Positions 30,925 to 59,750 of a stretch of DNA of 64,000 nt are shown one piece after another. Both the position numbers and the translations under genes were made by a program. Source of the stretch: Owenia fusiformis (lineage: Eukaryota; Annelida; Polychaeta; Sabellida; Oweniidae); assembly GCA_903813345.2 (NCBI GenBank), contig CAIIXF020000008.1:6832366-6896365 (forward strand), given 5' to 3'. The notes below the pieces were generated by a model, which saw nothing but the letters and a program-made list of their open reading frames with translations, did no database searches and was not told the origin of the DNA. Position 1 is the stretch's first letter, and every line of letters starts with the position of its first letter.

Positions 30925-32590
30925 CTACATCCGACTGACAAATATGTCATTATAGCGGTATGTTGTACAGAGAGGCTCTGGTTTGTTTCTCTCCTCAATC
31001 TCTAGTTTAACCATGACAGCGGACCCTAACGACGCTATGGTTGCTATGACAACAAGCCCAAATGAGTAAGACGGACTGGGTTCAACGTTTTTGATACCGA
31101 ATATAACTTCGTCCAGTTGGGAAAACCTTGCACACGTGACGATGAAACTGATGAAGAACAGCATACCTGGAAGCATGGTCAAAAATGGATTATGCAGAGT
31201 TGGATAAACAGCATTACTAGAAATATGTACAGATATGGATTATGCATAGTTGGGCAAATAGCATTACTAGAAATATGAACAGAAATGGATTATGCAGAGC
31301 TGGGTTAACAGCATTACTAGAAATATGTACAGATATGGATTAGGCAGAGTGGGGAAAACAGCATTACTTGAAATATGTACAGAAATGGACAATGCAGAGT
31401 TGGGTAAACAGCATTACTAGCAATATGTACAGAAATGGACAATGCAGAGTTGGGTAAACAGCATTACTAGAAATATGTACAGAAATGGATTATGCAGAGT
31501 TGGGTAAATAGCATTACTAGAAATATATACAGAAATGGATTACGCAGAGTTAGGTAAACATCATTATTTGAAATATGTACAGAAATTGATTATTCAGAGT
31601 TAGGTAAACAGCATTACTAGAAATATGTACAAAAATGGGTTATGCAGAGTTGGTAAACAGCATTACTAGAAATATGTACAGAAATGAATTCTGTTCGGTA
31701 AATTGAGGCTTCAAAGAAATCATGATATCTCATCAAACTATTAAACTAACAATACTATGATCACGTGGGTACTTTGTCATTTTCCGTAACAAACTTCTTA
31801 AAAACTACACATAACCAAAATGTTTTACTGATAAATGATATATGTGACAATCTTACCTCCTATAACAATACAAGCAAGGACAACTTTTAAGGATTTCTTT
31901 GAGATGTCTCTGTCGAGGACAAGGAATACGATTAACAATAGTCCCAGGATCAAAAACACAAGTCCGCATGCTGCAAGAACTTGAACTGCTATATACCAAT
32001 CGGCTGAAAATATGAAATATTAATATCAATATCCTTAATTTTTGAAGGATTAAAATAATAGATAAACACAAGGCTCCAAACTGTTAGATAATTTTTGATG
32101 AATCAAAACATTGAAATTTGACATTAAAGAGGGCAGTGTTAAATGAGTAATTTGACATATAAAGTTGAACTGACTCCTACTCAAAATTAAACTTACGTAA
32201 CGGCAACGGGTCTACGGTAACAAACTCTAGACATGCTTCAGCAGCAAACATTTCATCCGTCTTCAAGGCAGCGCAGGCCCTCCATAGCCCATAGGCCACA
32301 CTGCCGACCCTAACCGACGCATTCCCCGACGTTGACACAGACAACTCCCCAGCGGGAGTTCTAAGAGGTATCCCTTGTGCTAAATCAACTGTCTCATTAG
32401 ATAATGGTGTTGGTGTCGTTACAGTAGGAAGGAAAATAATCCAACTGGGTGTGGCGAAGGCCACGATGCTCACGATATTTCCGATCAAAAGCAAGATTGC
32501 AGCAATCAGAAGCCATTTGGTATGACCACTCAAAACAACTGTTTTATTTGTCTTTGGTGTTGGTATGATTCTCCCCGTTTCATTTTCCAT
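30925..32590 (-). CDS. Claudin/PMP22-like four-helix membrane protein 1
   Basis: Exons in transcript order: 32197-32590 (ATG at 32588-32590), 31857-32003, 30925-31166; 260 residues. Both introns are phase 1 with GT..AG borders. Helices are at about 26-47, 134-160, 169-191 and 212-236. The first extracellular loop has the family signature: W50, then GLW at 101-103, C106 and C120. The loop is longer than in typical claudins (about 85 residues) and has possible N-glycosylation sites. The C-terminal tail ends VSRM. Family members act in the plasma membrane in paracellular barriers or as PMP22/EMP-type proteins; the role here is inferred from the fold alone. A 50-bp tandem repeat fills intron 2 right up to the exon 3 acceptor. 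First of three - strand paralogues. Confidence 0.88.
31183..31685. repeat. 50-bp tandem repeat, about ten copies, in intron 2 of claudin-like gene 1
   Basis: The unit contains ggattatgcagagttgggta then aacagcattactagaaatat. It starts about 16 nt from the exon 3 acceptor (exon start 31166), so the branch point and pyrimidine region of this intron lie within or beside the array. Confidence 0.9.
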
Positions 32591-34563: not shown

Positions 34564-37556
34564 TTAATCGAATCTGGACTGTATCAAAAGCTGTGTACAG
34601 ATACCTCCAATGATGCTAGTGAAACATGCGGTAATCATAAGGAAGTAGGAGTAGCCAAAGTTCATACTGGTGGCTCCAGTAGATAAAGCCCAACTGTAAG
34701 CGCCCGTAGTAGGATTGGCATTAGCCCCATAAAGGGCAACCGCAACAAACAAAAGCAAACCTGGAAATATAATGAACATGCATTTTTCATAAACGTCCCA
34801 GCAACAACTTGGTGTAACTAGACCATACAATGTCTGGCTGAATAGAAAGTACTTATTTACATATCTGTTTTACTGTTCTTGTTATTTTCACTATGGTGTC
34901 ATCTAGTTTGTCTTATTCTATTTAGACTAACTGTATCATACTTGATGAAACAAAACTATTGGCTATCGAGGTTAGAAATAAGGGGTATTTCATCACAAAA
35001 ATAAGCATCTCTTGTGATGAAGTTTCATTACTAAAAACATTTGTTATCTCTAAAAGGACGAATGTCATCACAAAATGTTATTTCTCACTTACCTGCAAAA
35101 AGTGCCACAATCATGAGGAATATATGCAGGTGTTTGTTACCAGCGAAACATAGTGTTCCAATGGCGATGAAAAAGGCAAGAAGAGCGAATACAACTCCCA
35201 CTGTTGAAATGATGGTACAGGTGATTATCCAGGGGTCTGAAAATAAAATAATCATCGATGTTAGTTTGCTTGTTTGGTTAGTTGATTGCTTGTGGGTTTG
35301 TTGGTTTATATTGGACCTATTGCTCGATGACTAGACGTGTATGTTGAGTGGTGATCAGCTTTAGAAAAATTATATATTTAAATTATAGAAGTTATATATG
35401 ACAATCTGAAGACGTTCTGCACTGTCAACCATTTACGTTGCATTTTTCTTTACAATGAATGTGTTCAAACCTTTGAAAACATGAAAATAATTTTAAGTGA
35501 AGTCTGAAAGACGGCATTGAAAACGTTTTTACAGCTCACTGTCCGTATTGAGTTATTTCCATTGATAGCAGAAATGATATAAGTTTACACTAAAAAAGAG
35601 AAGTATGTTGGCCTTAAATGGATCAGAAAGTTAGAGGGTGATAACGCATCATGAAAATTAACTATCAACTGTTGTATTTTGGGAAAACATAGTACGACTT
35701 TGATACTGTAATCACAAACTTATTTAAGATATAAAACTGACATTTGATATTGTATCTAGTTAATTAGTAAGCACAACATACAACGTTTACACAACTATAT
35801 AATTAGAATGTGTGATCACTGAACCCTTCCATCACCTCCGGGGTGATAACGAGATGCATGTTGAAATTATGGTCATTGAAGTGCAACGCTGAACAGAAAT
35901 GATTGATAAAATAAAGGTAATTGGTAAAAGCTAGGATGATGTATGGCATGGGGTATAAGTTGTATATTTTATTCACACACATGTTCAGTGTCTAAGTTTT
36001 AGTTGCTCCAACTTCAAGTGGTGTTAATAACAACAACTTGGAAATCGAAGATGACACATGTATGTTACTGATTTGGTAAACGAATAATGTGGTGTTAAAT
36101 TATTGTTGATCAATTTTAATTATTTCAACGGTTATGCTAGATTGAAAAACTTATTTAATTTGGACAATTGGCTTTCCAAAGTGTACTTCATTACATTTAG
36201 AAACACTTTGGTATTGTTAATTCCAGAAAATAATAGTGATTAAACACGTTGTTATTGTTAATTCCAGAAAATATAGTTCAATCAGCATTAACATTGCACT
36301 GGTTTATTTTGTATAGTGATTACAAGCATTTAAATACCAGCTGGGTGCTTATACTAAACCTACATGATAACATGCAATATTGGCCATGCTTATAGGTTCT
36401 TACTACTTATTCCATTGCATTAGTCGGTCTAAAGACGATTCAAAGACAACGACAGTGTGATTTAATGGGGGGGGGGGGGCATGGTGATTCAAAAAGAATG
36501 GTAAACATGATAACCCAAAAATAAAAGGCAGATTCAAAGGAAGGGCATGGTGATTCAATAGGAAGGTCGTTGTGATTCAAAAAGAAGAACATTGTGATTC
36601 AAAGAGTGATTCCAAGAGAAAGGCAATGTAATTCAAGGAAAATCACAAGGTGATTCAAATAGAAGGTCTGATTCGAGTCAATAAGGAGAGCATGGTGTTA
36701 TAACGAATTGACAGAATCATGATGTGATCCAAAGGAAGGTCAATGATGTGATCAAAAAACAATGACAAGTTATTCAACGTGAAGGGCATGGTAATGGGCA
36801 AGGGCATTATGGTATGTATGTTGGCCAATGTAAGTTGGTTATGCTGGATTTCTGGTGGGTGATTGATTAGTCTGTATCCGACAGACTGGTCATAAATCAG
36901 GCTGATATTTTCAGAAAATTAAAAAAAATTCAAACTATATGACATAGTCTAAGAGGTTGATTCAGTTCTATATGTAAAAACATAGGCTAGTATAAAAACA
37001 TATCAAAAACCATGTATGGAATGAACTATGCGTATAATATCTTACTCCAATTAGGAAGTCATTGAAATTTCAGAACATGCGGACCTTCCTTAACATTCTA
37101 GCAAATAGCCCCGTAGAGGCCATGGTTTTCTTGATAGTGTACATCAACCATACTAGGCTCAGGTAGCCATTACAATTTCTGAACAGAATTACCTTAACTG
37201 GTAAATATGATATTCTAATAATAAATCATCTCACCCAATCTGTCAAATTGCTCTACAATGAAAACATCACATGATCCATCAAATGGCTCTGGTATAGCTT
37301 CCGGCTCAGGTCCTGGCTCTGGGGTTGTCACATTTGTATTTTCTGGCTCCGGTTCTGGTTCTGCCCCACCGAACCAATTTGTACCTTTTGGACAACTTTC
37401 CCACAATCCGAGATTTAGTTGTGTCCCATTTCTGTCGGCCACCATCCAGCTGCTAGTTATGAGTCCAGCAATACCACATCCGACTGCCGCCCCGATGAAA
37501 ATCAATGTAAACGCCATGGCACAACTGCCTCCTGACTTCTTTCCTTGTCCTTCCAT
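34564..37556 (-). CDS. Claudin/PMP22-like four-helix membrane protein 2
   Basis: Exons in transcript order: 37235-37556, 35093-35236, 34564-34760; 220 residues. Both introns are phase 1. Start taken at MEGQGKK (37554-37556); an upstream in-frame Met (MRFLFREW..) would add a basic N-terminus and cannot be excluded. Helices are at about 12-34, 110-137, 143-166 and 190-211. W37, GLW at 50-52, C55 and a later C96 form the claudin-type loop signature. Between the two cysteines is an acidic Pro-Glu block (AEPEPEPEN, then PEPGPEPEAIPEP, about residues 66-91), not usual in claudins. The C-terminus is short (LLIQSRFD). Same exon plan as its two neighbours. Its intron 2 is short and repeat-free. Confidence 0.88.
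36460..36800. repeat. Degenerate minisatellite (GTGATTCAAA motif) and poly-G tract
   Basis: Irregular repeats of gtgattcaaaaagaaggncat, about 20-30 bp apart, follow a run of ten or more G near 36468-36478. It lies in intron 1 of claudin-like gene 2. Confidence 0.6.
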
Positions 37557-38595
37557 TTTCAATTTGTCTTCGTCTATTGCGATATTTTTATGACGAATTC
37601 TTTTACTTGTTGATCCTGTGAACCACTCCCGAAATAGAAAACGCATGCGCAAACTAGTAAAACACACTGAATAGGACTTTATAAACCAGGTATTTGGTAA
37701 CAGTCCAAACACCTTTCGAATTTTATACGATTGTTTTATTAGAGTTTTAAAGTACAACATATATTGTTAACCCCGGAAAATTAAGCGCATGGTATTAAAC
37801 TATGTATGTTTACTGTATTTACTTGTTAACTTACAAAGTAGTACAAGGTTTAGCTTCAACTAAAATTCATATAAAATCGTTGAGATCTGAAATCATAAAA
37901 CAACATCATAAACTTGAAATAAAATCAAACCCTGTTTAGTATGGTGAATAGTTGGTTTTAGGTTTGAATTGTACGTGTTCCCTGGAGCTTTAACATTGAC
38001 ACATATTGGCATAAATAGCTACTATTATCCTTAAGTTTTTAGGCGCTAATATCAATACTAACTGTAACACACAACTGGCCTTTAAAAAAGATGGCATTGT
38101 TAGTCGAGAATGACAATGTACCACCACTTATATTAATAAAATGGTACAAAACTCCCGGCACACGGAACTCCGTCATCGACGCCGGTCCTATAAACAACAA
38201 TATGTCAAGGAGTATTTGAATTATATAAGCATCGTCCTTGGTTGTACCCGTTTGTGGTAACATGCATGATTAGCGAGTAGCACCTATTCACAATTTCCTT
38301 TCGCCTGTTTCAAATATATCCACTGACAGCGCAATAAACTGTTAAACTGAATTTAAATTATATATGATTAGCTTTGTAATTGGCAAACAATTTTTTCATT
38401 GTATATGATTGATAATATTATAATACCATTAGATGCATGGTGCGCGTGTAGAACTAAAATGGCATCCTGAAAATCTTCAATTTGTTTAGAAAATTGCAAT
38501 AGGAAGCTAAGGAAACAAGAGATGGTTATCATCTCTCGTGATGTAAAGTATAGTTTTAGCTAGATTCTAGTACACGTGTATATAACAAACAATAT

Positions 38596-39425
38596 CACAG
38601 GCTGGTATCGAAATATTTGTCCGCTGTGACGGAGCATGCTATTTTTCATTAAAACACTAAGAATACTTCACGATTTATTTTTTAACTCATATGTTTCGTT
38701 ATACCATACAAAATTACTTACTCCATGCAATGGATATATCATTTGCGGGTAACTTTCACTTCTGTTTGAAATCCAATTGCGCTAGTAAGAAAAGCTATTG
38801 AAAATGGCGCCAGAGTATCATACTTCAAAATGCACCATTTCTTGTTTAACTTTCTAATGGCACGATATAGTGACACGATAATATTTACACATGGTTTCAG
38901 CATAATTATGAAGGTATAAATGAGATGTTGATGTATTTGGTCTTTTTAATTCTTTTATAAAAAATAATGTTTAATTTTTTTGTCCGCTGTGACGGAGCAG
39001 TTGCAAAGGTGAACTGTGAAAATGCTCCGTCACAGCGGACAAAAAATATTAATATTATTTTTTATAAAAAATTAAAAAGATCCAATGCATTAATATCTCA
39101 TTAAAACATTCAGAGTTATGCTGAAAACATATGTTAATATTATCGTGTCACTATATCATGCCATTAAAAAGTTAAAAAAGAAATGGTACATTTTAGAGTT
39201 TGATACTCTGGCGCCGTTTTCAATAGATTTTACTCCAAGCGTTATTGGACTTCAAACAGAAGTGAAGGTTACACGCAAATGATATATCCATTGCATGGAG
39301 TAAGTAATTATCTTTGATATAACGAAACATATGAGTTAAAAAATAAATCGTGAAGCATCCTTAGTGTTTTTATGAAAAATAGTATGCTCCGTCACAGCGG
39401 ACAAATCTTTCGATACCAGCCTGTG
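38596..39425. mobile_element. 830-bp foldback transposon with near-full-length arms
   Basis: Two arms of about 390-400 bp in inverted orientation surround a short loop (about 39000-39022). The ends are CACAGGCTGGTATCG and its complement. Flanks are AATAT at 38591-38595 and 39426-39430; the duplicated copy B near 43.39 kb carries a single AATAT with no element, which is an empty site. TCCGCTGTGACGGAGCA occurs four times, next to each end and on both sides of the loop. It has no coding capacity and is related to the element at 26960-27268. Confidence 0.92.
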
Positions 39426-39536
39426 AATATGTGTTGATTTAAAAGATCTTTAAGATTTACGATAATCAATGTTAATCCGATATTTTCTATTCGGCGAAAC
39501 AACTGATTTGAAGAACATCATGGTATGATTAGGCTT

Positions 39537-39727
39537 ACCCTTTGCATGCGATTCGTTTGACCTGGCTTCTGAAAACAGCTTCGTCCACGAAAATCTCGAA
39601 TTTAACTTCCAGAATTGCTCAGACTCTCGTATTATTAATCTAATTTCTACCCTGCATGCAGAGTCTAGTTAAACTACAGAAGAAGCTCTCTTTTAAGAAG
39701 TGAAGTCAAACGAATGCAAAGGGTATC
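39537..39727. repeat. Inverted-repeat segment partly lost in copy B
   Basis: ccctttgcatgcgattcgtt on the left is mirrored by caaacgaatgcaaagggta on the right, about 190 bp apart. Copy B (about 43.5-43.63 kb) keeps the left side but lacks the right arm. Confidence 0.6.
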
Positions 39728-39774
39728 TAATTTCAGGCCCAAGGCCAGCTTTTCCGACTGAGGAGCTCTTACTG

Positions 39775-39890
39775 ATCAGAAGGGCACTGATCGTTCAGAA
39801 GAACTCTCATTTTTCAGAAGGACCCTCAATTTTCAGAAGGGCTATCAATTTTCAGGAGAGCTATCATTTTTAGCAGAGCTCAAAATTACT
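39775..39890. repeat. Short minisatellite, ttcagaagggctctcaatt type
   Basis: Five to six units of about 19-20 bp with the core TCAGAAGGGC. A similar set is in copy B at about 43.66-43.78 kb. Confidence 0.6.
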
Positions 39891-40885
39891 CAAAATGTTG
39901 TCAATTTACAAAAGTAATGCAATTTTTCGATATTAAAATGCCGATCTAACAAATACGGTTTTCCAAAAGGCAGCAAACTACTATAGTAACGAGAAACGCA
40001 CATGTAGATCAAACGATGTTGTCATTTTTTCTCGATCTTTTAGCAAGTTTAAGACCAGAAAATGAATCCGAAAATGTTAGAAATCGCTTTAATTGTTTGA
40101 ACAAGCATTATCGATACGACAGAAGTTTTGCTAGGTTGCTCTTGTATTTGTACCCTTTATTTAAAATCACGGGCAATATCTTACTTATCACTCGGCTTGC
40201 TTATGATATTGAAAGGTGATGATTGTTTTTGACCTAATTTTATTAAAATTAATTTCCAATGGTCACATTTTCATGGAAAATAATGGTGTTTCCAGGACGT
40301 CCTGCTTTTTACATCCAAAGGATTAAACGGCCTCCCCTTTATGCTCGGGGCATTGGGCTTCAGCCTTTAAATATTCTAATGGACTTGAGTACTGTCGATA
40401 GATGGCATGCCGTTCACTAGCATTACAGACTCATCAAGAAGGGCCAAATGTCTCACCACTTTTCAAACGGGTGCAATAAATGGTAAGGAGGACTGCTAAT
40501 TTCAAACTTAAATATTGGCAATTGAATAAATATAGTCTATTGCGATGAATAATTTACTTCATATTCATCAGCTATCTAATACTGATTTTTCAATTCATTT
40601 TTCAAATAGCCAATTTGCAGTCAGCTTGTTGGATAAAATGCTATTAGTGGAGTGTACAACTATGGCCTTAAAAATAAATGTGGAATTGAAAACGTTTTCG
40701 ATTACACTGAATCTAGGTCAAAGTCAGAATTTATTTGTCGAAAAATATAGATTGACTATACTGTATTCTGATTGGCCAGAAGATGATAGCTTAGCTCATC
40801 CTTGCTGCAAGAGTATTTTACAGGTTTATACCCTTGCTCTCTCTATTCAATTGTTGGGCTTGAGCAAACAAACTGGACATTAAGT

Positions 40886-41343
40886 CATAGTATGTGTCAA
40901 ATATCATTTAAAGCTTATCCGAAGTTACATTGATTCGCCAAGTGTCGTTGTTCAACTCTCAAATGTGAAAAATAGTCATTTTAAAATTTAGTGTTTGGTC
41001 AAAATTAAGTTCAATTTTACACCAAAGGAAACTCTTCTACATGTATAGTCCCTTAACAGGTTTTAAGAGGGTTATAAAATTCCACACCCCTATATGAAGG
41101 GTTTTAAGGTCATATCTGAAAATAATTGCTGCTGTTAACATGACAGGGAACACATTGACTAGTAATGTGGTGTACAATTGAACATGCTTTTAAAATGACT
41201 TTAACTTTTTCCCATTAGGGAGTTAAACCATGATACTTGGCAAATCAATGTAACTCTGGATAAGCTTTAAAATGATATATGACACAAAGTATGAGGACAC
41301 TGGAATATGTCTGCCTAGGGGGCATACTTTCGGGACACCCTGT
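40886..41343. mobile_element. Inverted-repeat element specific to copy A
   Basis: Arms at about 40886-40945 and 41233-41295 are complementary (tatgtgtcaaatatcattta against its mirrored form). The right end runs to gggacaccctgta, which resembles a mariner/Tc1 terminus. Copy B has unrelated sequence at this position. The left boundary is unclear. Confidence 0.5.
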
Positions 41344-42391
41344 ATATTAAGCATGTTCACAATTTGATATTTTCAATATAACTTTATTATATGTGCTTAC
41401 AAAATTAGCGACCAAAGTTTATTTGTATACATTTAATGATCACAATACGTACAATAATACTATGTACAATACATACAAACAGAATTGCAGTTAATATACA
41501 TGTACACATAAACGATACATATGAAGTGTCTCTGTCGTAAGAAAATGGTAGTAAAAACGCTACTACTAATAAAGTTATTTGCTTGTCTGCATTTAATATT
41601 ATCAGAACAAAATCCAGAATATAATCAGAGTAAAATGCTAAACTGTGTTCGTCATTTATTTTACTGTCAGTTGATAAATATATGTTTATTCCACGAGGAG
41701 ATTTTAATGGAAATGTCCCATCAATTATCTGATTTATCTGGAGCGAATGACTCGACAACAAATAAAATATTCTCCACTCTCGTTACATAATACTCTTTCT
41801 TTCGGACGAAATGGAAAGTTCCATAATGATCTTAATAAAAATGAATAATATATAAGCCCATATATACAAGTCCATCCCATTGATAATATATCACACATTT
41901 CTATTGAAGGGGTAAATATTTTAGCGACCGCACTCGCGTTATTATGTCTATTCGGTTATGTCGATTTTATAAGCTTTTTATCATTTTATATCTTTTCAAC
42001 ATATCCGGTAACCAAGGGGTAAAATACCAGCACTAGACTTCATCACCAGTTTCATTTAAAATCGTGTGAGTGTTAATATTATTGTTGGGATTTCCAGGGT
42101 CTGATTTTTGGAAAATCAAACTGGTTCAAGCAAGTATAGAATATTTGTTTGTAGATCTAGATTGTAACCGTCTTCGACTTCCAAGGTAATTATGGAGCAA
42201 CTACTGAAACCTTGTGAATCAAGATGGATTGTAAGTAAAGCCTCAGTCACATTTGATCTACGGCAACCATACAGAGGCCGTAGAGCCCGCCGTAGAGCAA
42301 ATGAAGCTGAGCCGTTGCAAATTGTAACTGCCTCGCCATCATGTTGCTTGGCCACCATGTAATATTCATCATTTGCCATTTAATAAGGAGT

Positions 42392-42543
42392 CTATGCGGC
42401 AAATGTTATCCCACCTAAGGCAAAGTTCACCAATACTGTCATTACGGCTAGTCCAAAGGAATATGACAACGTGGATTCCCTGAGAACGTCATGTTCTCTG
42501 AACTTTGCTGCGAGCACCACCAAACCAATGAACCAGAGAATTC
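42392..42543 (-). CDS. Last exon 3A of claudin-like gene 3 (distal copy)
   Basis: Acceptor TTATTTCAG, then 152 bp encoding ILWFIGLVVLAAKFREH and the fourth helix, ending ITFAA and TAG. It differs from exon 3B at three sites, all synonymous (Ile ATT/ATA, Thr ACA/ACT, Leu TTA/TTG). Both copies keep acceptor, phase and stop, so 3A could serve as an alternative terminal exon about 3.4 kb downstream of 3B. Whether it is used is unknown. Confidence 0.75.
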
Positions 42544-42570
42544 CTGAAATAACAAAACGCAGTGTCAAGA

Positions 42571-43190
42571 AATGTGGGACAAAACGGCCCTATGGAACAA
42601 AATGGTCATATGGGACAAGACGGTCATATGTGTCAAGACGGTCATGTGGGTCAAAACGGTCATATGGGACAAGACGGTCATATGGGACAAAACGGTCCTA
42701 TGGAACAAAATGGTCATATGGGACAAGACGGTCATATGTGTCAAGACGGTCATGTGGGTCAAAACGGTCATATGGGACAAGACGGTCATATGGGACAAAA
42801 CGGTCCTATGGAACAAAATGGTCATATGGGACAAGACGGTCATATGTGTCAAGACGGTCATGTGGGTCAAAACGGTCATATGGGACAAGACGGTCACATG
42901 GGACAAAACGGTCATATGGGACAAAACGGTCATCTGGGACAAAACGGTCATGTGGGTCAAAACGGTAGTATGGGACAAAATGGGCATATAGGAGAAGACG
43001 GACATATGGGATAACACGGGCATATGGGATGAGACGGTCATATAGGACAAAACGGCCATGTGGGACAAAACGGTCATACAGGACAAGACGAGTGATGGGA
43101 CAAAACGGTCATATCGGACAAAACAGTCATATGGGACAAAACGGTCATGTGGGACAAGACAGGCATATGGGACAAGAAGTCGTATTGGAA
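42571..43190. repeat. 18-bp minisatellite, array 1 (about 34 units)
   Basis: Unit GGACAAAACGGTCATATG with variants. The first half has a six-unit, 108-bp higher-order repeat present three times (cctatgg marker at 42589, 42697 and 42805). It starts about 27 nt from the exon 3A acceptor. The open frames it creates are not genes. Confidence 0.95.
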
Positions 43191-46140
43191 AACAATTTTT
43201 TGATTGTATATGATTGATAATATTAATACCATTAGATGCATGGTGCGCGTGTAGAACTAAAATGGCATCCTGAAAATCTTCAATTTGTTTAGAAAATTGC
43301 AACAGGAAGCTAAGGAAACAAGAGATGGTTATCATCTCTCGTGATGTAAAGTATAGTTTTAGCTAGATTCTAGTACAAGTGTATTTAACAATCAATATGT
43401 GTTGATTCAAAAGATCTTTAAGATTTACGATAATCAATCTTAATCCGATATTTTCTATTCGGCGAAACAACTGATTTGAAGAACATCATGGTATGTTTAG
43501 GCTTACTCTTTGCATTCGTTTCGTTTGACTTGGAAAAGCAGCTTCTTAAAACAGTTTCGTCCACGGAAATCTCGAATTTAACTTCCAGAATTGCTCAGAC
43601 TCTCGAATAATTAAATTCTAATTTTAGGCCCAAAGCCAGCTTTTCCGACTGAGGAGCTCTTACTGATCAGAAGGGCGCATCTTTCAAGAGAGCGCTCATT
43701 TTTTCAGAAGGGCTCTCAATTTTCAGAAGGGCTAACATTTTTCAGGAGAGCTATAATTTTTAGCAGAGCTTGAAATTAATCAAAATGTTGTCAATATTAC
43801 AAAATAATGCAATTTTTCGATATTAAAATGCCAATCTAACAAATACGGTTTTCCAAAAGGCAGCAAACTACTATAGTAACGAGAAACGCACATGTAGATC
43901 GTACGATGTTGTCATTTTTTCTCTTTAGCAGGTTTAAGACCAGAAAATGAATCCGAAAATGTTAAAAATCGCTTTAATTGTTTGAACAAGCATTATGATA
44001 CGACAGAAGTTTTACTAGGTTCCTCTTTAGATCGGCTTGTATTTGTACCCTTTATTTCAAATCACGGCCAATATTTTACTTATCACTTGGCTTGCTTATG
44101 ATATTGAATGGTGATGATTGTTTTTTGACCTCATTTTATTAAAATTCATTTCCAATGGTCACATTTTCATGGAAAATAATGGTGTTTCCAGGACATCCTG
44201 CTTTTTACATCCAAAGTCTTCCCCCTTATGCTCGGGTCATTGGGCTTCAGCCTTTAAATATTCTAATGGACTTGAGTACTGTCGATAGATGGCATGCCGT
44301 TCACTAGCATTACAAACTCATCAAGGAGGGGCTAAATGGAGGAGGACTGCTAATTTCAATCTTAAATATTGGCAATTGAATAAATATAGTCTATTGCGAT
44401 GAATAATTTACCTCATGTTCATCAGATATCTAATACTGATTTTTCAATTCATTTTTCAAATAGCCAATTTGCAGTCAGCTTGTTGGATAAAATGCTATCA
44501 GTGGAGTGTACAACTATGGCCTTAAAAATGTGTAATTGAAAACGTTTTCGATGACACTGAATCTAGGTCAAGGTCAGAATTTATTTGTCGAAAAAATAGA
44601 TTGACTATACTGTATACTGGATTGACCAGAATATGATAGAATGCTTAGAATGCTGCAAGGGTATTTTACAGGTATACACTTGCTTCTCTCTGGACAATAA
44701 ACAATATTAGCCTACACCACATACCATAAGCGTAAGCTCGGAGAACTATACACACAGTGGACAAGGGTACTTAAAATCCTGTTGAATGGTCCACAAAGCT
44801 GAAAATGAAAGCATAAATGAAGTCCTTTGAAGAAGGATGGCCTAGCTATCATATTATATGACGTACGAAAGTACTTGAATAGTCCTATATAATTACTTGA
44901 ATTTCTTGAATTCCCCTATTATATATTAAGCATGTTCACAATTTGATATTTTCAATATAACTTTATTATATGTGCTTACAAAATTAGCGACCAACGTTTA
45001 TTTGTATACATTTAATTATCACAATACGTACAATAATATATGTACAATACATGAAAACAGAATTGCAGTTAATATACACTTAACGATACATATGTAGTGT
45101 CTCTGTCGTAAGAAAATGGTAGTAAAAACGCTACTACTAATAAAGTTATTTGCTTGTCTGCATTTAATATTATCAGAACAAAATCCAGAATATAATCAGA
45201 GTTAAATGCGACTAAACTGTGTTCGTCATTTATTTACTGTCAGTTGATAAATATATGTTTATTCCACCAGGACATTTTAATGGATATGTCCCATCAATTA
45301 TCTGATTTATCTAGAGCAATTGACTCCACAATAAATTAAATATTCTCCACTCTCGTTACATAATACTCTCTCTTTCGGACGAAATGGAAAGTTCCATAAT
45401 GATCTGAATAAAAATGAATAATACATAAGCCCATATATACAAGTCCATCCCATTGATGATATATCACACATTTCTATTGAAGGGGTAAATATTTTAGCGA
45501 CCGCACTCGCGTAATCATGTCTATTCAGTTATGTAGATTTTACAAGCTTTTTATCATTTTATAACTTTTCAACAAATCCGGTAACGAAGGGGTAAAATAC
45601 AAGCACTAGACTTCATCAACAGTTTCATTAAAAATCGTGTGCGTGATAATATAATGGTTGGGATTTCCAGGGTCTGATTTTTGGAAAATCAAACTGGTGC
45701 AAGCAAGTATAGAATATTTGTTTGTAGATCTAGATTGTAACCGTCTTCGACTTCCAAGGTAATTATGGAGCAACTACTGAAACCTTGTGAATCAAGATGG
45801 ATTGTAAGTTAAGCCTCAGTCTCATTTGATCTACGGCAACCATACAGAGACCGTAGAGCCCTCCGTAGAGCAAATGAAGCTGAGCCGTTGCAAATTGAAA
45901 CTGCCTCGCCATCATGTTGCTTGGCCACCATGTAATATTCATCATTTGCCATTTAATAAGGAGTCTATGCGGCAAATGTTATCCCACCCAAGGCAAAGTT
46001 CACCAATACAGTCATTACGGCTAGTCCAAAGGAATATGACAACGTGGATTCCCTGAGAACGTCATGTTCTCTGAACTTTGCTGCGAGCACCACCAAACCA
46101 ATGAACCAGAGTATTCCTGAAATAACAAAACGCAGTGTCA
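43191..46140. repeat. Segmental duplication, copy B
   Basis: Diverged direct duplicate of copy A without the 830-bp foldback element. It has its own unmatched stretch at about 44.69-44.93 kb. It ends with last exon 3B, followed by the larger minisatellite array. Apart from exon 3B, nothing in it is coding. Confidence 0.85.
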
Positions 46141-49100
46141 AGACATATGGGACAAAACGGTCATATCGGGCAAAACGGTGATATGGGACAAAACGGTCAT
46201 GTGGGATGGTACAAGACGGCCATATGGCACAAAACGGTCATATTGGACAAAACGGTCATATAGGACAAAACGGTCATATGGGACTAGACGAGCGTACGGA
46301 CAAAACTGTCATATTGAGCAAAACAGTCATATGGGACAAAACGGTCATCTGGGACAAAACGGTCATCTGGGTCAAAACAGTAGTATGGGACAAAATGGGC
46401 ATATTGGAGAAGACGGGCATGTGGGATAAGACGGTCATATAGGACAAAACGGTCAAATGGGACAAAATGGTTATATGGGACAAGACGAGCATATGGGACA
46501 AAACGGTCATATGGGACAAAACGGTTATATGGAGCAAAATGGATATATGGGACGAGACGAGCACATGGAACAAGATGGGCATATGGGGACAAAACGGTCA
46601 TATGGGACAAAATGGTTATATGGAGCAAAATGGATATATGGGACGAGACGAGCACATGGAACAAGATGGGCATATGGGACAAAACGGTCATATGGGACAA
46701 AATGGTTATATGGAGCAAAATGGATATATGGCACAAGACGAGCACATGGCACAAGATGGGCATATGGGACAAAACGGCATATGGAACAAAATGGTCATAT
46801 AAGACGGACAGATGGGACAAAACGGTCATATCGGGCAAAATGGTGATATGGGACAAAACGGTCATGTGGGATGGTACAAGACGGTCATATGGGACAAGAC
46901 GAGCGTACGGACAAAACTGTCATATTGAGCAAAACAGTCATATGGGACAAAATGGTCATCTGGGACAAAACGGTCATGTGGGTCAAAACAGTAGTATGGG
47001 ACAAAATGGGCATATTGGAGAAGACGAGCATGTGGGATAAGACGGTCATATAGGACAAAACGGTCAAATGTGACAAAACGGTCAAATAGGACAAAACGGT
47101 CATGTGAGACAAGAGGAGCGTAAGAAACAAAACTGTCATATCGGGCAAAACAGCCATATGGGACAAAACGGGCATATGGGACAAGACGTCATATTGGACA
47201 AAACGGGCATATGGGACAAGACGAGCGTATGGGACAAGACGGTCATATGGGACATAACGGTTATATGGGACAAGACGAGCACATGGCACAAGACGAGCAT
47301 ATGGGACAAAATGGTCATATGGGACAAAACGGTTATATGGAGCAAAATAGATATATGGGACGAGACGAGCACATGGAACAAGATGGGCATATGGGGACAA
47401 AACGGTCATATGGGACAAAACGGTTATATGGAGCAAAATGGATATATGGGACGAGACGAGCACATGGAACAAGATGGGCATATGGGGACAAAACGGTCAT
47501 ATGGGACAAAATGGTTATATGGAGCAAAATGGATATATGGGACGAGACGAGCACATGGAACAAGATGGGCATATGGGACAAAACGGCATATGGAACAAAA
47601 TGGTCATATAAGACGGACAGATGGGACAAAACGGTCATATCGGGCAAAATGGTGATATGGGACAAAACGGTCATGTGGGATGGTACAAGACGGTCATATG
47701 GGACAAGACGAGCGTACGGACAAAACTGTCATATTGAGCAAAACAGTCATATGGGACAAAATGGTCATCTGGGACAAAACGGTCATGTGGGTCAAAACAG
47801 TAGTATGGGACAAAATGGGCATATTGGAGAAGACGAGCATGTGGGATAAGACGGTCATATAGGACAAAACGGTCAAATGGGACAAAACGGTCAAATAGGA
47901 CAAAACGGTCATGTGAGACAAGAGGAGCGTAAGAAACAAAACTGTCATATCGGGCAAAACAGCCATATGGGACAAAACGGGCATATGGGACAAGACGTCA
48001 TATTGGACAAAACGGGCATATGGGACAAGACGAGCGTATGGGACAAGACGGTCATATTATATGGGAAAGAACGGTCATATGGGACATAACGGTTATATGG
48101 GACAAGACGAGCACATGGCACAAGACGAGCATATGGGACAAAATGGTCATATGGGACAAAACGGTTATATGGAGCAAAATAGATATATGGGACGAGACGA
48201 GCACATGGAACAAGATGGGCATATGGGGACAAAACGGTCATATGGGACAAAACGGTTATATGGTGCAAAATGGATATATGGGACGAGACGAGCACATGGA
48301 ACAAGATGGGCATATGGGACAAAACGGCATATGGGACAAAACGGTCATATGGGACAAAATGGTTATAACGGACAAGACGAGCACATGGCACAAGATGGGC
48401 ATATGGGACAAAACGGCATATGGGACAAAACGGTCATATGGGACAAAACGGTCATATGGGACAAGGCGGTCATATTGGACAAGACGGCATATGGGACAAA
48501 ATGGTCATATAAGACGGACAGATGGGACAAAACGGTCATATCGGGCAAAATGGTGATATGGGACAAAACGGTCATGTGGGATGGTACAAGACGGCCATAT
48601 GGGACAAAACGGTCATATCGGACAAAACGGTCATATAGGACAAAACGGTCATATGGGACAAGACGAGTGACAGACAAAACTGTCATATTGAGCAAAACAG
48701 TCATATGGGACAAAACGGTCATCTGGGACAAAACGGTCATGTGGGTCAAAACAGTAGTATGGGACAAAATGGGCATATTGGAGAAGACGGGCATGTGGGA
48801 TAAGACGGTCATATAGGACAAAACGGTCAAATGGGACAAAACGGTCAAATAGGACAAAACGGTCATGTGAGACAAGAGGAGCGTATGAAACAAAACTGTC
48901 ATGTCGGGCAAAACAGCCATATGGGACAAAACGGGCATATGGGTCAAGACGTCATATTGGACAAAACGGGCATATGGGACAAGACGAGCGTATGGGACAA
49001 GACAGTCATATTATATGGGAAAGAACGGTCATATGGGACAAAACGGTTATATGGAGCAAAATGGATATATGGGACGAGACGAGCACATGGAACAAGATGG

Positions 49101-52100
49101 GCATATGGGACAAAACGGCATATGGGACAAAATGGTTATAACGGACAAGACGAGCACATGGCACAAGATGGGCATATGGGACAAAACGGCATATGGGACA
49201 AAACGGTCATATGGGACAAAACGGTCATATGGGACAAGGCGGTCATATGGGACAAAACGGCATATGGGACAAAATGGTTATAACGGACAAGACGAGCACA
49301 TGGCACAAGATGGGCATATGGGACAAAACGGCATATGGGACAAAACGGTCATATGGGACAAAACGGCATATGGGACAAAACGGTCATATGGGACAAAACG
49401 GTCATATGGGACAAGGCGGTCATATTGGACAAGACGGCATATGGGACAAAATGGTTATAACGGACAAGACGAGCACATGGCACAAGATGGGCATATGGGA
49501 CAAAACGGCATATGGGACAAAACGGTCATATGGGACAAAACGGTCATATGGGACAAGGCGGTCATATGGGACAAGACGGCATATGGGACAAAACGGTTAT
49601 ATGGAGCAAAATGGTTATAACGGACAAGACGAGCACATGGCACAAGATGGGCATATGGGACAAAACGGCATATGGGACAAAACGGTCATATGGGACAAAA
49701 CGGTCATATGGGACAAAATGGTTATAACGGACAAGACGAGCACATGGCACAAGATGGGCATATGGGACAAAACGGCATATGGGACAAAACGGTCATATGG
49801 GACAAAACGGTCATATGGGACAAGGCGGTCATATGGGACAAAACGGCATATGGGACAAAATGGTTATAACGGACAAGACGAGCACATGGCACAAGATGGG
49901 CATATGGGACAAAACGGCATATGGGACAAAACGGTCATATGGGACAAAACGGTCATATGGGACAAGGCGGTCATATTGGACAAGACGGCATATGGGACAA
50001 AATGGTTATAACGGACAAGACGAGCACATGGCACAAGATGGGCATATGGGACAAAACGGCATATGGGACAAAACGGTCATATGGGACAAAACGGTCATAT
50101 GGGACAAGGCGGTCATATGGGACAAGACGGCATATGGGACAAAACGGTTATATGGAGCAAAATGGTTATAACGGACAAGACGAGCACATGGCACAAGATG
50201 GGCATATGGGACAAAACGGCATATGGGACAAAACGGTCATATGGGACAAAACGGTCATATGGGACAAGGCGGTCATATGGGACAAGACGAGCATATGGGA
50301 CAAGACGACCACATGGCACAAGACGGTAATATGGGACAAAACGGTTATATGGGACAAATGGTTATATGGGACAAGACGACCACATGGCACAGGACGGGCA
50401 TATGGGACAAAATGGTCATATGGGACAAAACGGTCATATCAGGCAAAACGGTTATATGGGACAAGATGGGCATATGGGAGAAGACGAGCACATGGCACAA
50501 GACGAGCATATGAAACAAGATGGGCATATGGGACAAAACGGTCATATGGGACAAAACGGTTATATGGGACAAAATAATTATATGGGACAAGACGACCACA
50601 TGGAACAAGATTCCGTCGCATTTTATCTAGTAGCTAGGCATTTGTCACTATCATTAATTAGTGACGAAACAAGTTTCAGAAAAATATTATAGAACAAATA
50701 GGTTATTGATGATCGTATTGGAGTATGAATTTTTCCTGAGAAAATATATATTGGCTTCGGAAAATAACATATTGACACTCGGCCCGTCGCCCTCGGTAAA
50801 TATTTTCCTTGGTCAATATCATATTTTCCCTCGAAATAAGATTCATATTCAATCCCTCCCATTAAATAACCTCTATATATTAGAGCATTATGACACCACC
50901 TGGTTCACAGATTCACAAATATTATATACCTGATGTGAAGCACGAGATGGCGATTCCTAATTTTATCTTGTCGCTCCTCTTCTCGTTGTCCATGCAGAGA
51001 TAGACACAGAATATAAGCAATGACATGAACACCAGGACGACACCCAGGAATATAAAGACTTGCACCGTCTCCCACCATTCAACTGAAAAATATAATGTTA
51101 TTAGGACAATATTATTGTGTAACTTACTACAGTACTTGTGACTGTTCACAGGAATTATATTTCAAGAATGAACTATTTGGATACATAACTATTTTAATAT
51201 TTCTAAATATTTAGTGAGGTCTCTTGGCGAAAAATTATCAGAAACGTGAATTCCAACAAGATACATGATTTTCCGAGTACCAGTATAGGTCTACGCATAT
51301 GCTGAGACTAACATAAAGAGACTAATATTATGATGGTCTCAGGTCTACACGAAAATGAAAAAACAATCCGAATTACTCAGGCTAGATTTACATTAAATTA
51401 AATTTAAATTTACATTAAATTAAGACGACCTTCATCAGAACGCTGCACCTCCGACAGACATTTCTATCGACCATTACATTCCAATGTTATGTCATGAGAC
51501 AAAATGCCCCCCCCCCCCCCTCATTGTGATCAAAGTTTTCTATCAGTTCTTCTATTAAAGAATGATAGCTTGAAAACAGAAAAACTCATGTATTTTCTAA
51601 AGTTGCATTTTCCTGTTCAAACCATCTGAATATGTATCATTGCCATTCCCCATAAAATCATAAAGACTGTTACCAGCAATAGGAAATACATGGGACCAAA
51701 CTTGGTATTTTAATTATGACATTGTATTCGTTCAAAATAATATTGATGGATCAAGATGATTTCAGGATTGAAGCAAGCATGTAATTGTTAATCAATATCG
51801 ATGTTTAATTCATGAGATTTTAGATGATTTAAGAATGCAATCACGCAAGCAAATATAGAGTAGTCAAGTTTGTCTTGATGGGTGGATTTTAATGGCCGGG
51901 TATAAGAAAGGTCTAGCATCGTGGTGAATCCAAGGTGGAGAGTCGGGGTATCAGCAGGTCGCCACTCTCCTAATAAAAGATTTCGATGTTTGTTTTGACT
52001 TAAAATTTGACTCTTCATCTTTGGACATCATTTTTGAAAATAGGCCTCGTTCTTTAGGGCACGTGTGTTTTAGTTTGAAACCGTAAGGCGGCCGTAGCTT

Positions 52101-55100
52101 CCCAAAATCGAGAGAATTATGCAGCATAACACATTGGGATAAGCCTTACGATGTAGATTTCTCCATCAATTTTGTGAAGATACAGCCGCCACACGGCCGC
52201 CGAGGAGCGAATGTGACCGAAGCTTAAGAAAACCAATGGACCATATGATGTCATGGGCCGCAAGTTAAATTAATTTTACGAATGCCTTAATTAATAGACA
52301 GAATTTGTTCGGTAAGTATTTGTTCTTTTAACTGTTTGCCTGGTAATGGTATTTGTCAACCTTGCGTTTATTCATCTAAAGTATTGCTCAATTTTATAGC
52401 ATTATAACATTCGGCTCAAGTTATGAAAATATGCAAACTGGAAACCGAATCCAAAACACGATCTAGTAGTTTACAACTCCAATGCTAGTTCAAGTACGTC
52501 AGCATAATTTGAGTCCAGATAAAACAATTTTCTACTGATTTATTATCATTTGAGGCAATGGAATAAACTCCCTACCAAAAGTTTGGAAAACCTAGCTCCT
52601 CCATTTGATTGATTTGAACCATTTTGCCAAAGCATGTTTAAAGTCGATGATTATCAAATACTCACAAATATCAAATTTGTGTGCAGAGGAGAAAATTTCA
52701 AAAATTAACAGGCTTTATATTATAGCATTCTTTCCGATGGAGAGTGGAATCAGTGGATGTCGTCAAGCGTTTGAAGGGGAGTGGATGCATATTAATAAAC
52801 GAATAATCAACTAACCAGGTAAACGATCACACCACAATCTACAATACGAATACGCTGAACAAACGGCAAATGACAAAGGCCGTCGTTATATATATATGCT
52901 TTTAAGTATGCTTTATGAACAGGTAATAATGATATCATCAAGCTGACAATAATACATGATACGGAACAACAAGATACACGCATGTAACACTTTGCAAAGA
53001 TGAACCTTGACTTAAATCCGATATTTCCTCATAAAATTGCAATGCTCATCGTGATAATAATAGTCCAGGGCAACCTCTCTTTCATTCATCATAGAGGTTC
53101 TCGTCATATATAGTCAAGAGGGACTTGTAAATCATATCCTCCGATCGCAAGGCTCCATCCAAGATCCAGAATATCAGGAAGAAGGAGGGACGAGTTCGGT
53201 ATCCCCATGGGCTTTCAATTAGTCTAGTTGAAAGCCCATGGTAGCCCTTTGTTCGGAGTATTTTAACATAGAGGAAATTCCTTAGGGGTACATGGGCCAA
53301 CAAGGAAGTTTTCTTCCAATTTCAAAATGAGTTAAAAACCAAACCATGGATCTCTTTTTAAATGGCTTGAAGTTATATTCTATTACAATTCTATCACTGT
53401 TAAAATTATATATCTGCTTTAAATGGGCTTATTAGCCTCTTGCAGGACATAGACATAGATAGGAAGATGGTAAATCAAAATGGGTTATATTTTTGAACCA
53501 ACCCTGAGGGTTGAGAAAACAGAAACTACCAAAAATCCAAAAAGTAAATATTACACATAAATGTACATGTACATCTTAAAACCGTTTGGTTATGTTTCCT
53601 TTTTAGTTTTAAATAATCCCTATACCTGGCTCCCTGCTAATTCAACATTTGACAATGTTGGGTTATCGCCAAAATAATAGAGATTTTCAACAAATCTATG
53701 AAAGTCTTGTGAAAAACTGAATTAGGTGTGAGTTAAAATCATCGCCAATAATCGAGAAGAAAAACAGGGACTAATACGTCCAAGGTCGTAAAGTATCCCT
53801 AGCAAGTTTTTGTCGTATAGTTTGATGTACCTTATAAGTAATTATCCGTGAGAATTTGGCCCAGGGAACTTACAAATCAAATCAAATATAGGGAACATAC
53901 ATTTTATTTGATTTCACTTAAAAATGCATAATCGACTGGATAATTCTATTCACCAATACACATGACCAATCTAGCTGCCAACGACGCAGTTGTTATTTGT
54001 GTTACATCTCAATTCAGGGACGACTCTAATAATGTGTCCCCATTGCCTCATCATTCTCCTCTTTATTTGTTGTTAAAAGTTACTTCGACAATCTTTCAGA
54101 ATAGATAAATGATTCATATTTCATGATTTATCACGGACGGGACTGATATAAATACATCCACGACTATGATTTATTCCCGGGGATTTGTTTCACTCGGTGT
54201 ATGATATCCCTCGTGTCTACTACCCCAGACCATCATATTCGAGGGAAGATATAGCCTATCAATTATTATTAGGAGATCGTCTTAAACTTCAAGAACCAGG
54301 GGAAATCAAAGCAATGACTGAGAACAAATAACCATTGCAAGAGCATGACTCTTCATGGAAAGGTCTCTTTGATACTAGGCTAGAAAGATCCAATGCAGAC
54401 CTATTGGCGCAGCCAGGGGCGTGACTCCCTGACTCGCACCCCCCCCCCTCCCCACTTCTGAGACCCCTAGCAGGAAAAGCAATGGCAATACGGCCATGTG
54501 TGCAAAATTTTAAGCTATTTAAACATATTGTTTAGCTATACTCCATTTGTGTCAGTGAGATACATTCAAAGGGATCACCTTGCATCACATGACCTGCATA
54601 TAGTCCTGCTTCAGACTGTGGACCTCCCCACAGGGGGAAGGGGCGGGGCATTCGAGGATTTGTAGCTAGACTAAAAACAGTTCTAGTTTGAAGAGTAGTA
54701 AACTATTGTTGCTTGTTTTCGCACATTAATCTAAAAACATGTCGAGTGACTGGTCATTCTCCTTACAAACGTTGAAGGTATGAAAGTGAAATGTATGATA
54801 CAATATGTAGTCTGTGTATATAGAGAAATGGTAGTCTCCATGAAGACGACACCTCCAAAAATGTATCCCCATATATGTAGAGAACAAAAATCCATACCTC
54901 TATATGACATGGTCCCTATGCTGGAGACGCACTCCGAGACTGATTCAAGGTTATACGATTCATGGAAATCCTTGGTGGTACATACAAGCCAAAGTCCTAT
55001 CATTGTAGTCTCGGAACTTGTAGGATTCTCCGTCGACTTGATGAGCCATCCCGGGGCAACGAACACCACAAGGTTCAATAGCATCACCACTATAAACACA

Positions 55101-55138
55101 ACCAAGACAACCTTGGCACAACCCGAGTTGTTCCCCAT
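45965..55138 (-). CDS. Claudin/PMP22-like four-helix membrane protein 3
   Basis: Exons in transcript order: 54898-55138 (ATG at 55136-55138), 50930-51082, 45965-46116 (exon 3B); 181 residues. A second, equivalent last exon 3A is at 42392-42543. Introns are phase 1, as in the two neighbouring paralogues. Helices are at about 9-30, 86-110, 120-142 and 157-178. The first extracellular loop has W31, GLW at 48-50, C53 and C70, the compact claudin-type signature. The tail after helix 4 is nearly absent, so no PDZ-binding end is apparent. Intron 2 (46117-50929) is almost entirely an 18-bp minisatellite; intron 1 (51083-54897) is about 3.8 kb. The family is clear, the specific function is not. Confidence 0.88.
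46141..50612. repeat. 18-bp minisatellite, array 2 (about 250 units)
   Basis: Unit GGACAAAACGGTCATATG. On the + strand it reads MGQNGH, WDKTVI or GTKRSY depending on frame, and on the - strand MTVLSH or VPYDRF; only one reverse frame meets a TGA in each unit. Blocks of several hundred bp recur (a shared marker block at about 46.21, 46.87, 47.68 and 48.58 kb). Towards 49.1-50.3 kb shorter higher-order repeats dominate, with frequent 17-bp units (GGACAAAACGGCATATG). Because indels only switch between open frames, long ORFs survive. It fills intron 2 of claudin-like gene 3, starting about 27 nt from exon 3B. Confidence 0.96.
51083..54897 (-). other. Intron 1 of claudin-like gene 3
   Basis: Non-coding as far as can be seen. 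It contains poly-C tracts (about 51508 and 54441), a hairpin at 53205-53241, and a - strand open stretch at 53082-53200 reading GALRSEDMIYKSLLTIYDEN. That stretch has protein-like composition but no family and no clear splice partner. A region at 52.07-52.22 kb carries ggcggccgtag-type repeats, also seen after exons 3A and 3B. Confidence 0.4.
53205..53241. repeat. 37-bp hairpin, second copy
   Basis: CCATGGGCTTTCAATTAG followed almost directly by CTAGTTGAAAGCCCATGG; same arms as 8786-8827 with a 5-bp shorter loop. Confidence 0.75.
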
Positions 55139-58309: not shown

Positions 58310-59750
58310 GGGGTAGCGTCAACAAGATTTAGAGACGAAGAATTTATCTATTTGACGGAAAAGGGGGTGCGTTTGCATTGCACCCCCCCCCCCTCCCAAA
58401 GGGCCATGTTCACCATCTATTGACCTGAAATACTACAATGTGGCAACTGATCAGTAACATGGGTAGCATTCATCATAACATAGTGACATCTTTCAATGAT
58501 TGTAAAAAGAGGGGTATGTTTGCATTGCACCCGCCCCCCCCCCCCCCGACGACCATGTATTGTATTGTATTATCTTCATTTCCTCCTAATAAAAGAAGAG
58601 CACAATAGTAACAGAGAGTAACTGAAATACTATGGTAAAGCGTGGCAGCTGATCGGTGAAATGGGTTGCATTCATCATAACACAGTGACATCTTTCAATG
58701 ATAGTAAAACTTTATCAGATTCAACAAGATTTAGAGAAATCATCGATATCATTATTGATGAAGAATTTATCTATTTGACGGAAAAGAGGGTGCGTTTGCA
58801 TTGCACCCCCCCCCCCTTCCCAAACGGCCATGTTCACCATCTATTGACCTGAAATACTACAATGTGGCAACTGATCAGTAACATGGGTAGCATTCATCAT
58901 AACATAGTGACATCTTTCAATGATGGTACAAAGAGGGGTGCGTTTGCATTGTACCCCCCCCTTCCCAAACGGCCATGTTCACCATCTATTGACCTGAAAT
59001 ACTACAATGTGGCAACTGATCAGTAACATGGGTAGCATTCATCATAACATAGTGACATCTTTCAATGATGGTAAAAAGAGGGGTGCGTTTGCATTGTACC
59101 CCCCCCCCCCTTCCCAAACGGCCATGTTCACCATCTATTGCCCTGAACTACTACAATGTGGCAACTGATCAGTAACATGGGTAGCATTCATCATAACAAA
59201 GTGACATCTTTCAATGATGGTAAAAAGAGGGGTGCGTTTGCATTGTACCCCCCCCCCCCCCCTTCCCAAACGGCCATGTTCACCATCTATTGACCTGAAA
59301 TACTACAATGTGGCAACTGATCAGTAACATGGGTAGCATTCATCATAACATAGTGACATCTTTCAATGATGGTAAAAAGAGGGGTGCGTTTGCATTGTAC
59401 CCCCCCCCTTCCCAAACGGCCATGTTCACCATCTATTGACCTGAAATACTACAATGTGGCAACTGATCAGTAACATGGGTAGCATTCATCATAACATAGT
59501 GACATCTTTCAATGATAGTAAAAAGAGGGGTATGTTTGCATTGCATCCACCGCCGCCCCCCCCCCCCCCCCCCTTGCCCAACGACAATGTTTTGTATTGT
59601 ATTATCTTCATTCATTTAAGAAGAGCACAATATAGTAAAAGAGAGTAACTGAAATACTATATAGTATAGCGTGGCAGCTGATCGGTGAGATGGGTTGCAT
59701 TCATCATAACACAGTGACATCTTTCAATGATAGTAAAACTTTATCAGATT
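58310..59750. repeat. 147-150 bp satellite with a variable poly-C tract
   Basis: About nine units marked by gtgcgtttgcattg followed by 7-17 C, then a shared block with catgttcaccatctattgac and ggtagcattcatcataacat. Two units (about 58557-58700 and 59585-59735) are a variant with tgtattgtattgtattatct instead of the usual sequence, so there is a two-type pattern. Non-coding. Confidence 0.9.

What the first reader, a model, noticed from the sequence alone, without database searches (positions are those of the whole stretch)
42392..46116. Two intact last exons for one claudin-like gene, differing only at synonymous sites
Exons 3A and 3B are both 152 bp and keep acceptor, phase and stop. All three differences between them are silent, while the surrounding duplicated DNA carries many substitutions and large indels. 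Either both are under protein-level selection (alternative terminal exons with different 3'UTRs) or the exon has been gene-converted.
Basis: partly seen in the sequence, partly recalled or inferred. Interest (0 to 1): 0.72.

Follow-up and report, generated by a model that had tools for sequence, protein, structure and literature searches.

The report
Duplicated last exon of claudin-like gene
A short stretch of animal DNA holding the last exon and tail of a claudin-like membrane-protein gene has been copied in tandem, giving two intact last exons that encode the same protein end; this is an ordinary kind of partial gene duplication and nothing here shows that the second copy is used.

Summary
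A claudin/LHFPL-like gene on the minus strand, modelled with three exons, has two 152-bp last exons, 3B (45965-46116) and 3A (42392-42543). They differ at three sites, all silent, and keep acceptor, phase and stop. They lie in a tandem duplication that also holds 3'UTR, downstream DNA and part of an intronic 18-bp minisatellite.

Silent sites differ at 3 of about 38 (7.9%); non-coding duplicated DNA differs at 42 of 1040 (3'UTR block, 4.0%) or 131 of 2537 (four blocks, 5.2%). Silent divergence is not reduced, so conversion of the exon is not needed. No replacement at about 114 sites is unlikely if both copies drifted (P 0.009 or 0.002) but marginal if one did (P 0.098 or 0.051). Amino-acid constraint is supported; constraint on both copies is not shown.

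Best reading: a fairly young tandem duplication; proximal 3B is probably the main terminus and 3A a redundant spare encoding the same protein end. A haplotype artefact remains possible, though no assembly gap favours it. No RNA data or relative was available. New member of a known kind; modest interest.

The parts
54898..55138 (-). Exon 1, coding part (ATG at 55138; first loop with GLW..C); 5' UTR not defined
   Evidence: ORF and donor AGAG|GTATGG read from sequence; splice join inferred
50930..51082 (-). Exon 2, 153 bp, ends with phase-1 G before GT donor
   Evidence: Sequence; found once in the window at E 0.01
46144..50608 (-). Large 18-bp minisatellite in intron 2, about 248 units
   Evidence: Tandem Repeats Finder
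45965..46116 (-). Terminal exon 3B (proximal)
44922..45964 (-). Putative 3'UTR block of 3B; AATAAA starting at 45263, 45234, 45002, 44967
   Evidence: Alignment; signals; not confirmed as transcribed
43184..44921 (-). Downstream DNA of unit B; junction with the array of unit A at about 43178-43184
42575..43175 (-). Small 18-bp minisatellite array at the head of unit A, about 33 units
   Evidence: differs from proximal array B at 126 of 605 aligned sites
42392..42543 (-). Terminal exon 3A (distal)
41343..42391 (-). Putative 3'UTR block of 3A; AATAAA starting at 41690, 41660, 41423, 41388
   Evidence: Alignment; signals
40845..41342 (-). 498-bp segment of copy A without match in B, starting CAGGGTGTCCCGAAAGT; about 230 bp of B (44692-44921) has no match in A
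38379..40844 (-). Downstream DNA of unit A (matching blocks 39726-40844, 39426-39646, 38379-38595), holding the 830-bp insertion 38596-39425

Best explanation
A tandem segmental duplication copied the 3' end of a claudin/LHFPL-like gene: part of the intron 2 minisatellite, the last exon, its 3'UTR with poly(A) signals, and about 1.7 kb beyond (measured in copy B). The join fuses downstream DNA to the minisatellite, perhaps at a shared CCAAT (sequence shown; mechanism inferred). Since then non-coding DNA has diverged 4-5%, copy A has gained insertions, and the coding exon has changed only at silent sites. Most likely the transcript splices exon 2 to the nearer exon 3B and ends at its poly(A) signals, while 3A is a redundant spare used little or not at all (inferred). 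If 3A is used the protein is the same and only the mRNA tail differs. The lack of replacements reflects amino-acid constraint on at least one copy plus the youth of the pair.
For: Collinear duplicated blocks with a single junction at about 43178-43184. The 30 bases beyond unit A's end occur once in the window. Identical acceptor region and the same four AATAAA signals in both UTR blocks. Silent divergence 3 of ~38 equal to or above flank 42 of 1040 and 131 of 2537; replacements 0 of ~114, P 0.009 or 0.002 under drift of both. Zero replacements is tolerable with one copy free (P 0.098 or 0.051). An 830-bp palindromic insertion with an ATATT repeat on both sides is in A, with its empty site in B.
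Against: No RNA: which exon is used is inferred from order alone. P 0.051 for one free copy (all-flank rate) leans towards constraint on both. The 245 sites around the exon have only 3 mismatches (P 0.010 at the UTR rate, 0.0011 at the all-flank rate) and 0 of 93 non-coding sites next to the exon differ (P 0.022 or 0.007); these windows were chosen after seeing the data, and a scan gives a 245-site window with at most 3 mismatches in 26% of random placements. Read depth was not available, so an artefact is not excluded.
Confidence: 0.6

Rival explanations
1. Both terminal exons are used and both are kept by selection, as alternative last exons with the same protein end and different 3'UTRs.
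For: Both keep acceptor, phase, stop and AATAAA signals; 0 replacements at ~114 sites, with one-copy-free P 0.051 at the all-flank rate. The UTR block is less diverged than the next block (42/1040 vs 71/1061, P 0.009). Duplicated terminal exons chosen exclusively are reported for pip in the fly (PMC9013439, section 6).
Against: One-copy-free P is 0.098 at the UTR rate; only three changes in all. The nearer exon comes with its own poly(A) signals. No RNA evidence.
Confidence: 0.13
2. Assembly artefact: the two copies are the two alleles of one locus placed in tandem (haplotypic false duplication).
For: 4-5% divergence with polymorphic-looking insertions would fit alleles of a very heterozygous animal (such levels in marine invertebrates are recalled, from no call). 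False exon gains from such errors are described in PMC9516828 (passages).
Against: No N in the window, whereas PMC9516828 lists gaps between copies among the hallmarks. The join has a sequence of its own, with about five shared bases, which is too little for an overlap join. Species, heterozygosity and reads unknown.
Confidence: 0.17
3. Gene conversion between the two exons homogenised the coding part after an older duplication.
For: 245 sites around the exon have 3 mismatches (P 0.010 or 0.0011) and 0 of 93 adjacent non-coding sites differ (P 0.022 or 0.007).
Against: Silent divergence is not below the flank. A scan of all 245-site windows gives at most 3 mismatches in 26% of random placements, and mismatch-free runs of 110 and 107 bases lie in the UTR itself. 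A broad tract over exon and UTR cannot be excluded, since the UTR block is less diverged than the next block.
Confidence: 0.04

Closest known systems
Tandem exon duplication (terminal exons), e.g. pip in D. melanogaster as described in PMC9013439 (section 6 read)
   Same: Last exon with its 3'UTR repeated in tandem in one gene, each copy with its own acceptor
   Different: Two copies only; the coding part is included and encodes the same residues; use of the second copy is untested
LHFPL / PMP22-claudin membrane proteins (PF10242, PF00822)
   Same: Spliced model scores above the curated cut-offs (40.4 vs 25.2 and 33.8 vs 26.7 bits); GLW..C in the first loop
   Different: Ends right after the fourth hydrophobic stretch; sequence search of solved structures gave one hit only, at E 0.25
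Heterotype false duplication / false exon gain in assemblies (PMC9516828, passages)
   Same: Adjacent copies, a few percent divergence, one exon of a gene involved
   Different: No gap between the copies; depth and k-mers not testable

Membership tests
Tandem exon duplication | Adjacent homologous exons in the same orientation within one gene | tested here: met
Tandem exon duplication | Length, phase and splice site kept in both | tested here: met
Mutually exclusive / alternative terminal exons | Transcripts joining the upstream exon to each copy | not testable with these tools
   No RNA data held
Mutually exclusive / alternative terminal exons | Selection on both copies | tested here: inconclusive
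   0 of ~114 replacements; one-copy-free P 0.098 or 0.051
Gene-converted duplicates | Silent divergence below flanking divergence | tested here: not met
   3/38 vs 42/1040 and 131/2537
PMP22/claudin/LHFPL proteins | Profile score above curated cut-off | tested here: met
PMP22/claudin/LHFPL proteins | Four-helix fold with extracellular sheet | not tested
   No structure was predicted
Heterotype false duplication | Gap between the copies | tested here: not met
   No N in 64000 bases
Heterotype false duplication | Half read depth and single-copy k-mers | not testable with these tools
   No reads; no genome held

The most novel reading that the evidence does not exclude
A minisatellite-seeded tandem duplication gave one gene two interchangeable last exons that encode exactly the same protein end, and selection keeps both because the choice of terminus sets which 3'UTR the mRNA carries: a young case of 3'UTR choice made by duplicating the whole terminal exon.
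Probability: 0.13. Interest if true: 0.42.

Novelty: new member of a known kind. Interest (0 to 1): 0.22.

Why it matters
If both exons are used, it would be a clean, young example of a terminal exon and its 3'UTR duplicated without changing the protein, so that the effect of the tail could be studied alone. If not, it is a caution: all-silent differences between young duplicates are expected when few changes have occurred and one copy works, and do not show that both copies work.

Tried and rejected
Gene conversion limited to the exon: rejected on silent divergence. A conserved core of 245 sites around the exon: nominal P 0.010 or 0.0011, then judged not unusual after a scan over all 245-site windows (26% of random placements). 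Independent gene for copy A: exon 1 and exon 2 of this gene were each found in full once at E 0.01. Relatives in viral contigs: 28 stretches matched a pattern, none confirmed. Solved structures: one hit, E 0.25, not used. Open frames through the 18-bp arrays on both strands: taken as a by-product of the 18-bp unit (inference), not as genes. Not searched: genome contigs, phages, plasmids, E. coli genomes, PHROGs, NCBIfam, PADLOC and Rfam, as the window looks like animal DNA. No structure was predicted and no tree built. Literature: searches gave listings; I saw passages of PMC9013439, PMC9516828 and PMC11175523 and section 6 of PMC9013439, and no paper in full. I make no claim that this locus is absent from print.

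Some numbers are post hoc: the 245-site stretch and the 93 non-coding sites were bounded after seeing the mismatches.

Full report
Setting. The window has no N and looks like animal DNA (intron-bearing claudin-like genes, a homeodomain; species unknown). The minus strand holds three claudin-like genes, each modelled here with three coding exons: the gene of the finding (55138 down to 45965), a second from 37556 to about 34564 and a third from 32590 to about 30925. Full spliced models of the three pass at least one curated cut-off of the PMP22/claudin/LHFPL families; partial models of the two paralogues did not. I saw one last exon in each paralogue model. A tblastn of the three exons at E 0.01 found exon 1 and exon 2 of the finding's gene once each in full and exon 3 twice in full, plus partial hits of exons 2 and 3 in the third gene, with looser settings, also listed exon 1 against the third gene at E 0.003. 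No genome is held for the window, so species, reads and relatives were out of reach. A protein search of viral contigs confirmed no relative.

Observation. Exons 3A and 3B are each 152 bp with three differences (one transition), all silent in the frame set by exon 2. The 27 intron bases before them are identical, as are the first 66 bases after the stop. A candidate branch point (TTGAC, A at -22; my reading, no tool) lies in the shared bases, so both acceptors look usable. Beyond that the introns are minisatellite, which differs at 126 of 605 aligned sites between unit A and the proximal part of unit B.

The duplicated unit. Four collinear non-coding blocks match between the copies. In A coordinates 41343-42391, 39726-40844, 39426-39646 and 38379-38595, they have 42/1040, 71/1061, 12/221 and 6/215 mismatches, 131/2537 in all. 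The blocks differ among themselves (chi-square P 0.017; first against second P 0.009), so the putative 3'UTR is somewhat less diverged than the next block, while the smallest and outermost block is the least diverged. Unit B ends at about 43184 and runs into the minisatellite of unit A. The sequence at unit A's far end (near 38379), the junction and array variants share CCAAT. Five shared bases fit a microhomology join, but such a match can be chance. Copy A carries an 830-bp insertion whose arms are inverted repeats (88% over 853 columns), with ATATT on both sides and the empty site in B, and a 498-bp segment starting CAGGGTGTCCCGAAAGT with no match in B.

Selection or conversion. Nei-Gojobori counting gives 37.7 silent and 114.3 replacement sites. 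Silent divergence 3/38 is not below the flank (Fisher two-sided P 0.21 against the UTR block, 0.45 against all blocks). Replacement divergence 0/114 is below it (one-sided Fisher P 0.012 and 0.003; simple product P 0.009 and 0.002). If only one copy drifted since the duplication, zero replacements has P 0.098 or 0.051. The whole exon (3/152) has P 0.13 or 0.04. With the flank's mutation spectrum 26% of random changes would be silent, so three of three has P 0.018 without constraint. The values treat sites as independent and take the flank as neutral, which a UTR may not be. Against a simple reading stands the low count around the exon: 3 in 245 sites (P 0.010 or 0.0011) and 0 in 93 non-coding sites (P 0.022 or 0.007), windows bounded after the fact; a scan over all windows finds as few in 26% of random placements. 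The conclusion is amino-acid constraint on at least one copy, no sign of conversion limited to the exon, and no proof for both copies.

Mechanism. Each UTR block has four AATAAA signals in matching places. The nearer exon 3B offers an acceptor and poly(A) signals first, so I take it as the main terminus and 3A as a spare; this is inference. If 3A is spliced, the product is the same protein with another tail. Duplicated terminal exons used in a mutually exclusive way are known (pip, PMC9013439 section 6).

Artefact. Allelic copies placed in tandem would also show intact coding, a few percent divergence and insertions in one copy. PMC9516828 (passages) describes false exon gains of this kind and lists gaps between the copies among the hallmarks. 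There is no gap here, and about five shared bases at the join would not drive an overlap assembly (inference). Without reads I leave this at 0.17.

Verdict. Observation confirmed; interpretation partly supported; an ordinary tandem partial gene duplication is the likeliest account. The low interest score reflects that three silent differences are close to what a young pair with one working copy would show.

Noticed in passing
31183-31690 and 46144-50608: In two of the three claudin-like genes a minisatellite (50-bp unit; 18-bp unit) fills intron 2 up to about 16 and 27 bases before the last exon. Two unrelated arrays at the same place in paralogous genes is odd and may bear on why the last exon was duplicated.
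   Followed up: no
1475-2356: Plus-strand ORF with a homeodomain (PF00046, 70.3 bits); it resembles NK2-type, perhaps Nkx2.2 (recalled, not tested). The claudin-like cluster lies next to it; nkx2.2 belongs to the deuterostome pharyngeal cluster (PMC11175523, passages).
   Followed up: partly
38588-39435: About 830-bp palindromic element with inverted arms (88%) flanked by ATATT on both sides; present in copy A, empty site in copy B. Looks like a foldback or MITE-type transposon (my reading).
   Followed up: partly
40845-41342: Segment starting CAGGGTGTCCCGAAAGT in copy A only; such an end looks like a DNA transposon terminus (recalled). It begins about 45 bases after the last AATAAA of the 3A tail.
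   Followed up: no
42565-43014 and 46284-50692: The 18-bp arrays are open in several frames on both strands (for instance HMGQNG-type repeats of up to 299 residues); probably a by-product of the unit length.
   Followed up: no
10170-11549: Minus-strand open frame of 459 residues that looks like the end of a non-LTR reverse transcriptase (my reading, not searched).
   Followed up: no
58782-59543: 152-bp tandem repeat, 5.2 copies, 95% matches.
   Followed up: no
37233-37556: Exon 1 of the second claudin-like gene carries an acidic proline run (EPEPEPE) in the first loop.
   Followed up: no
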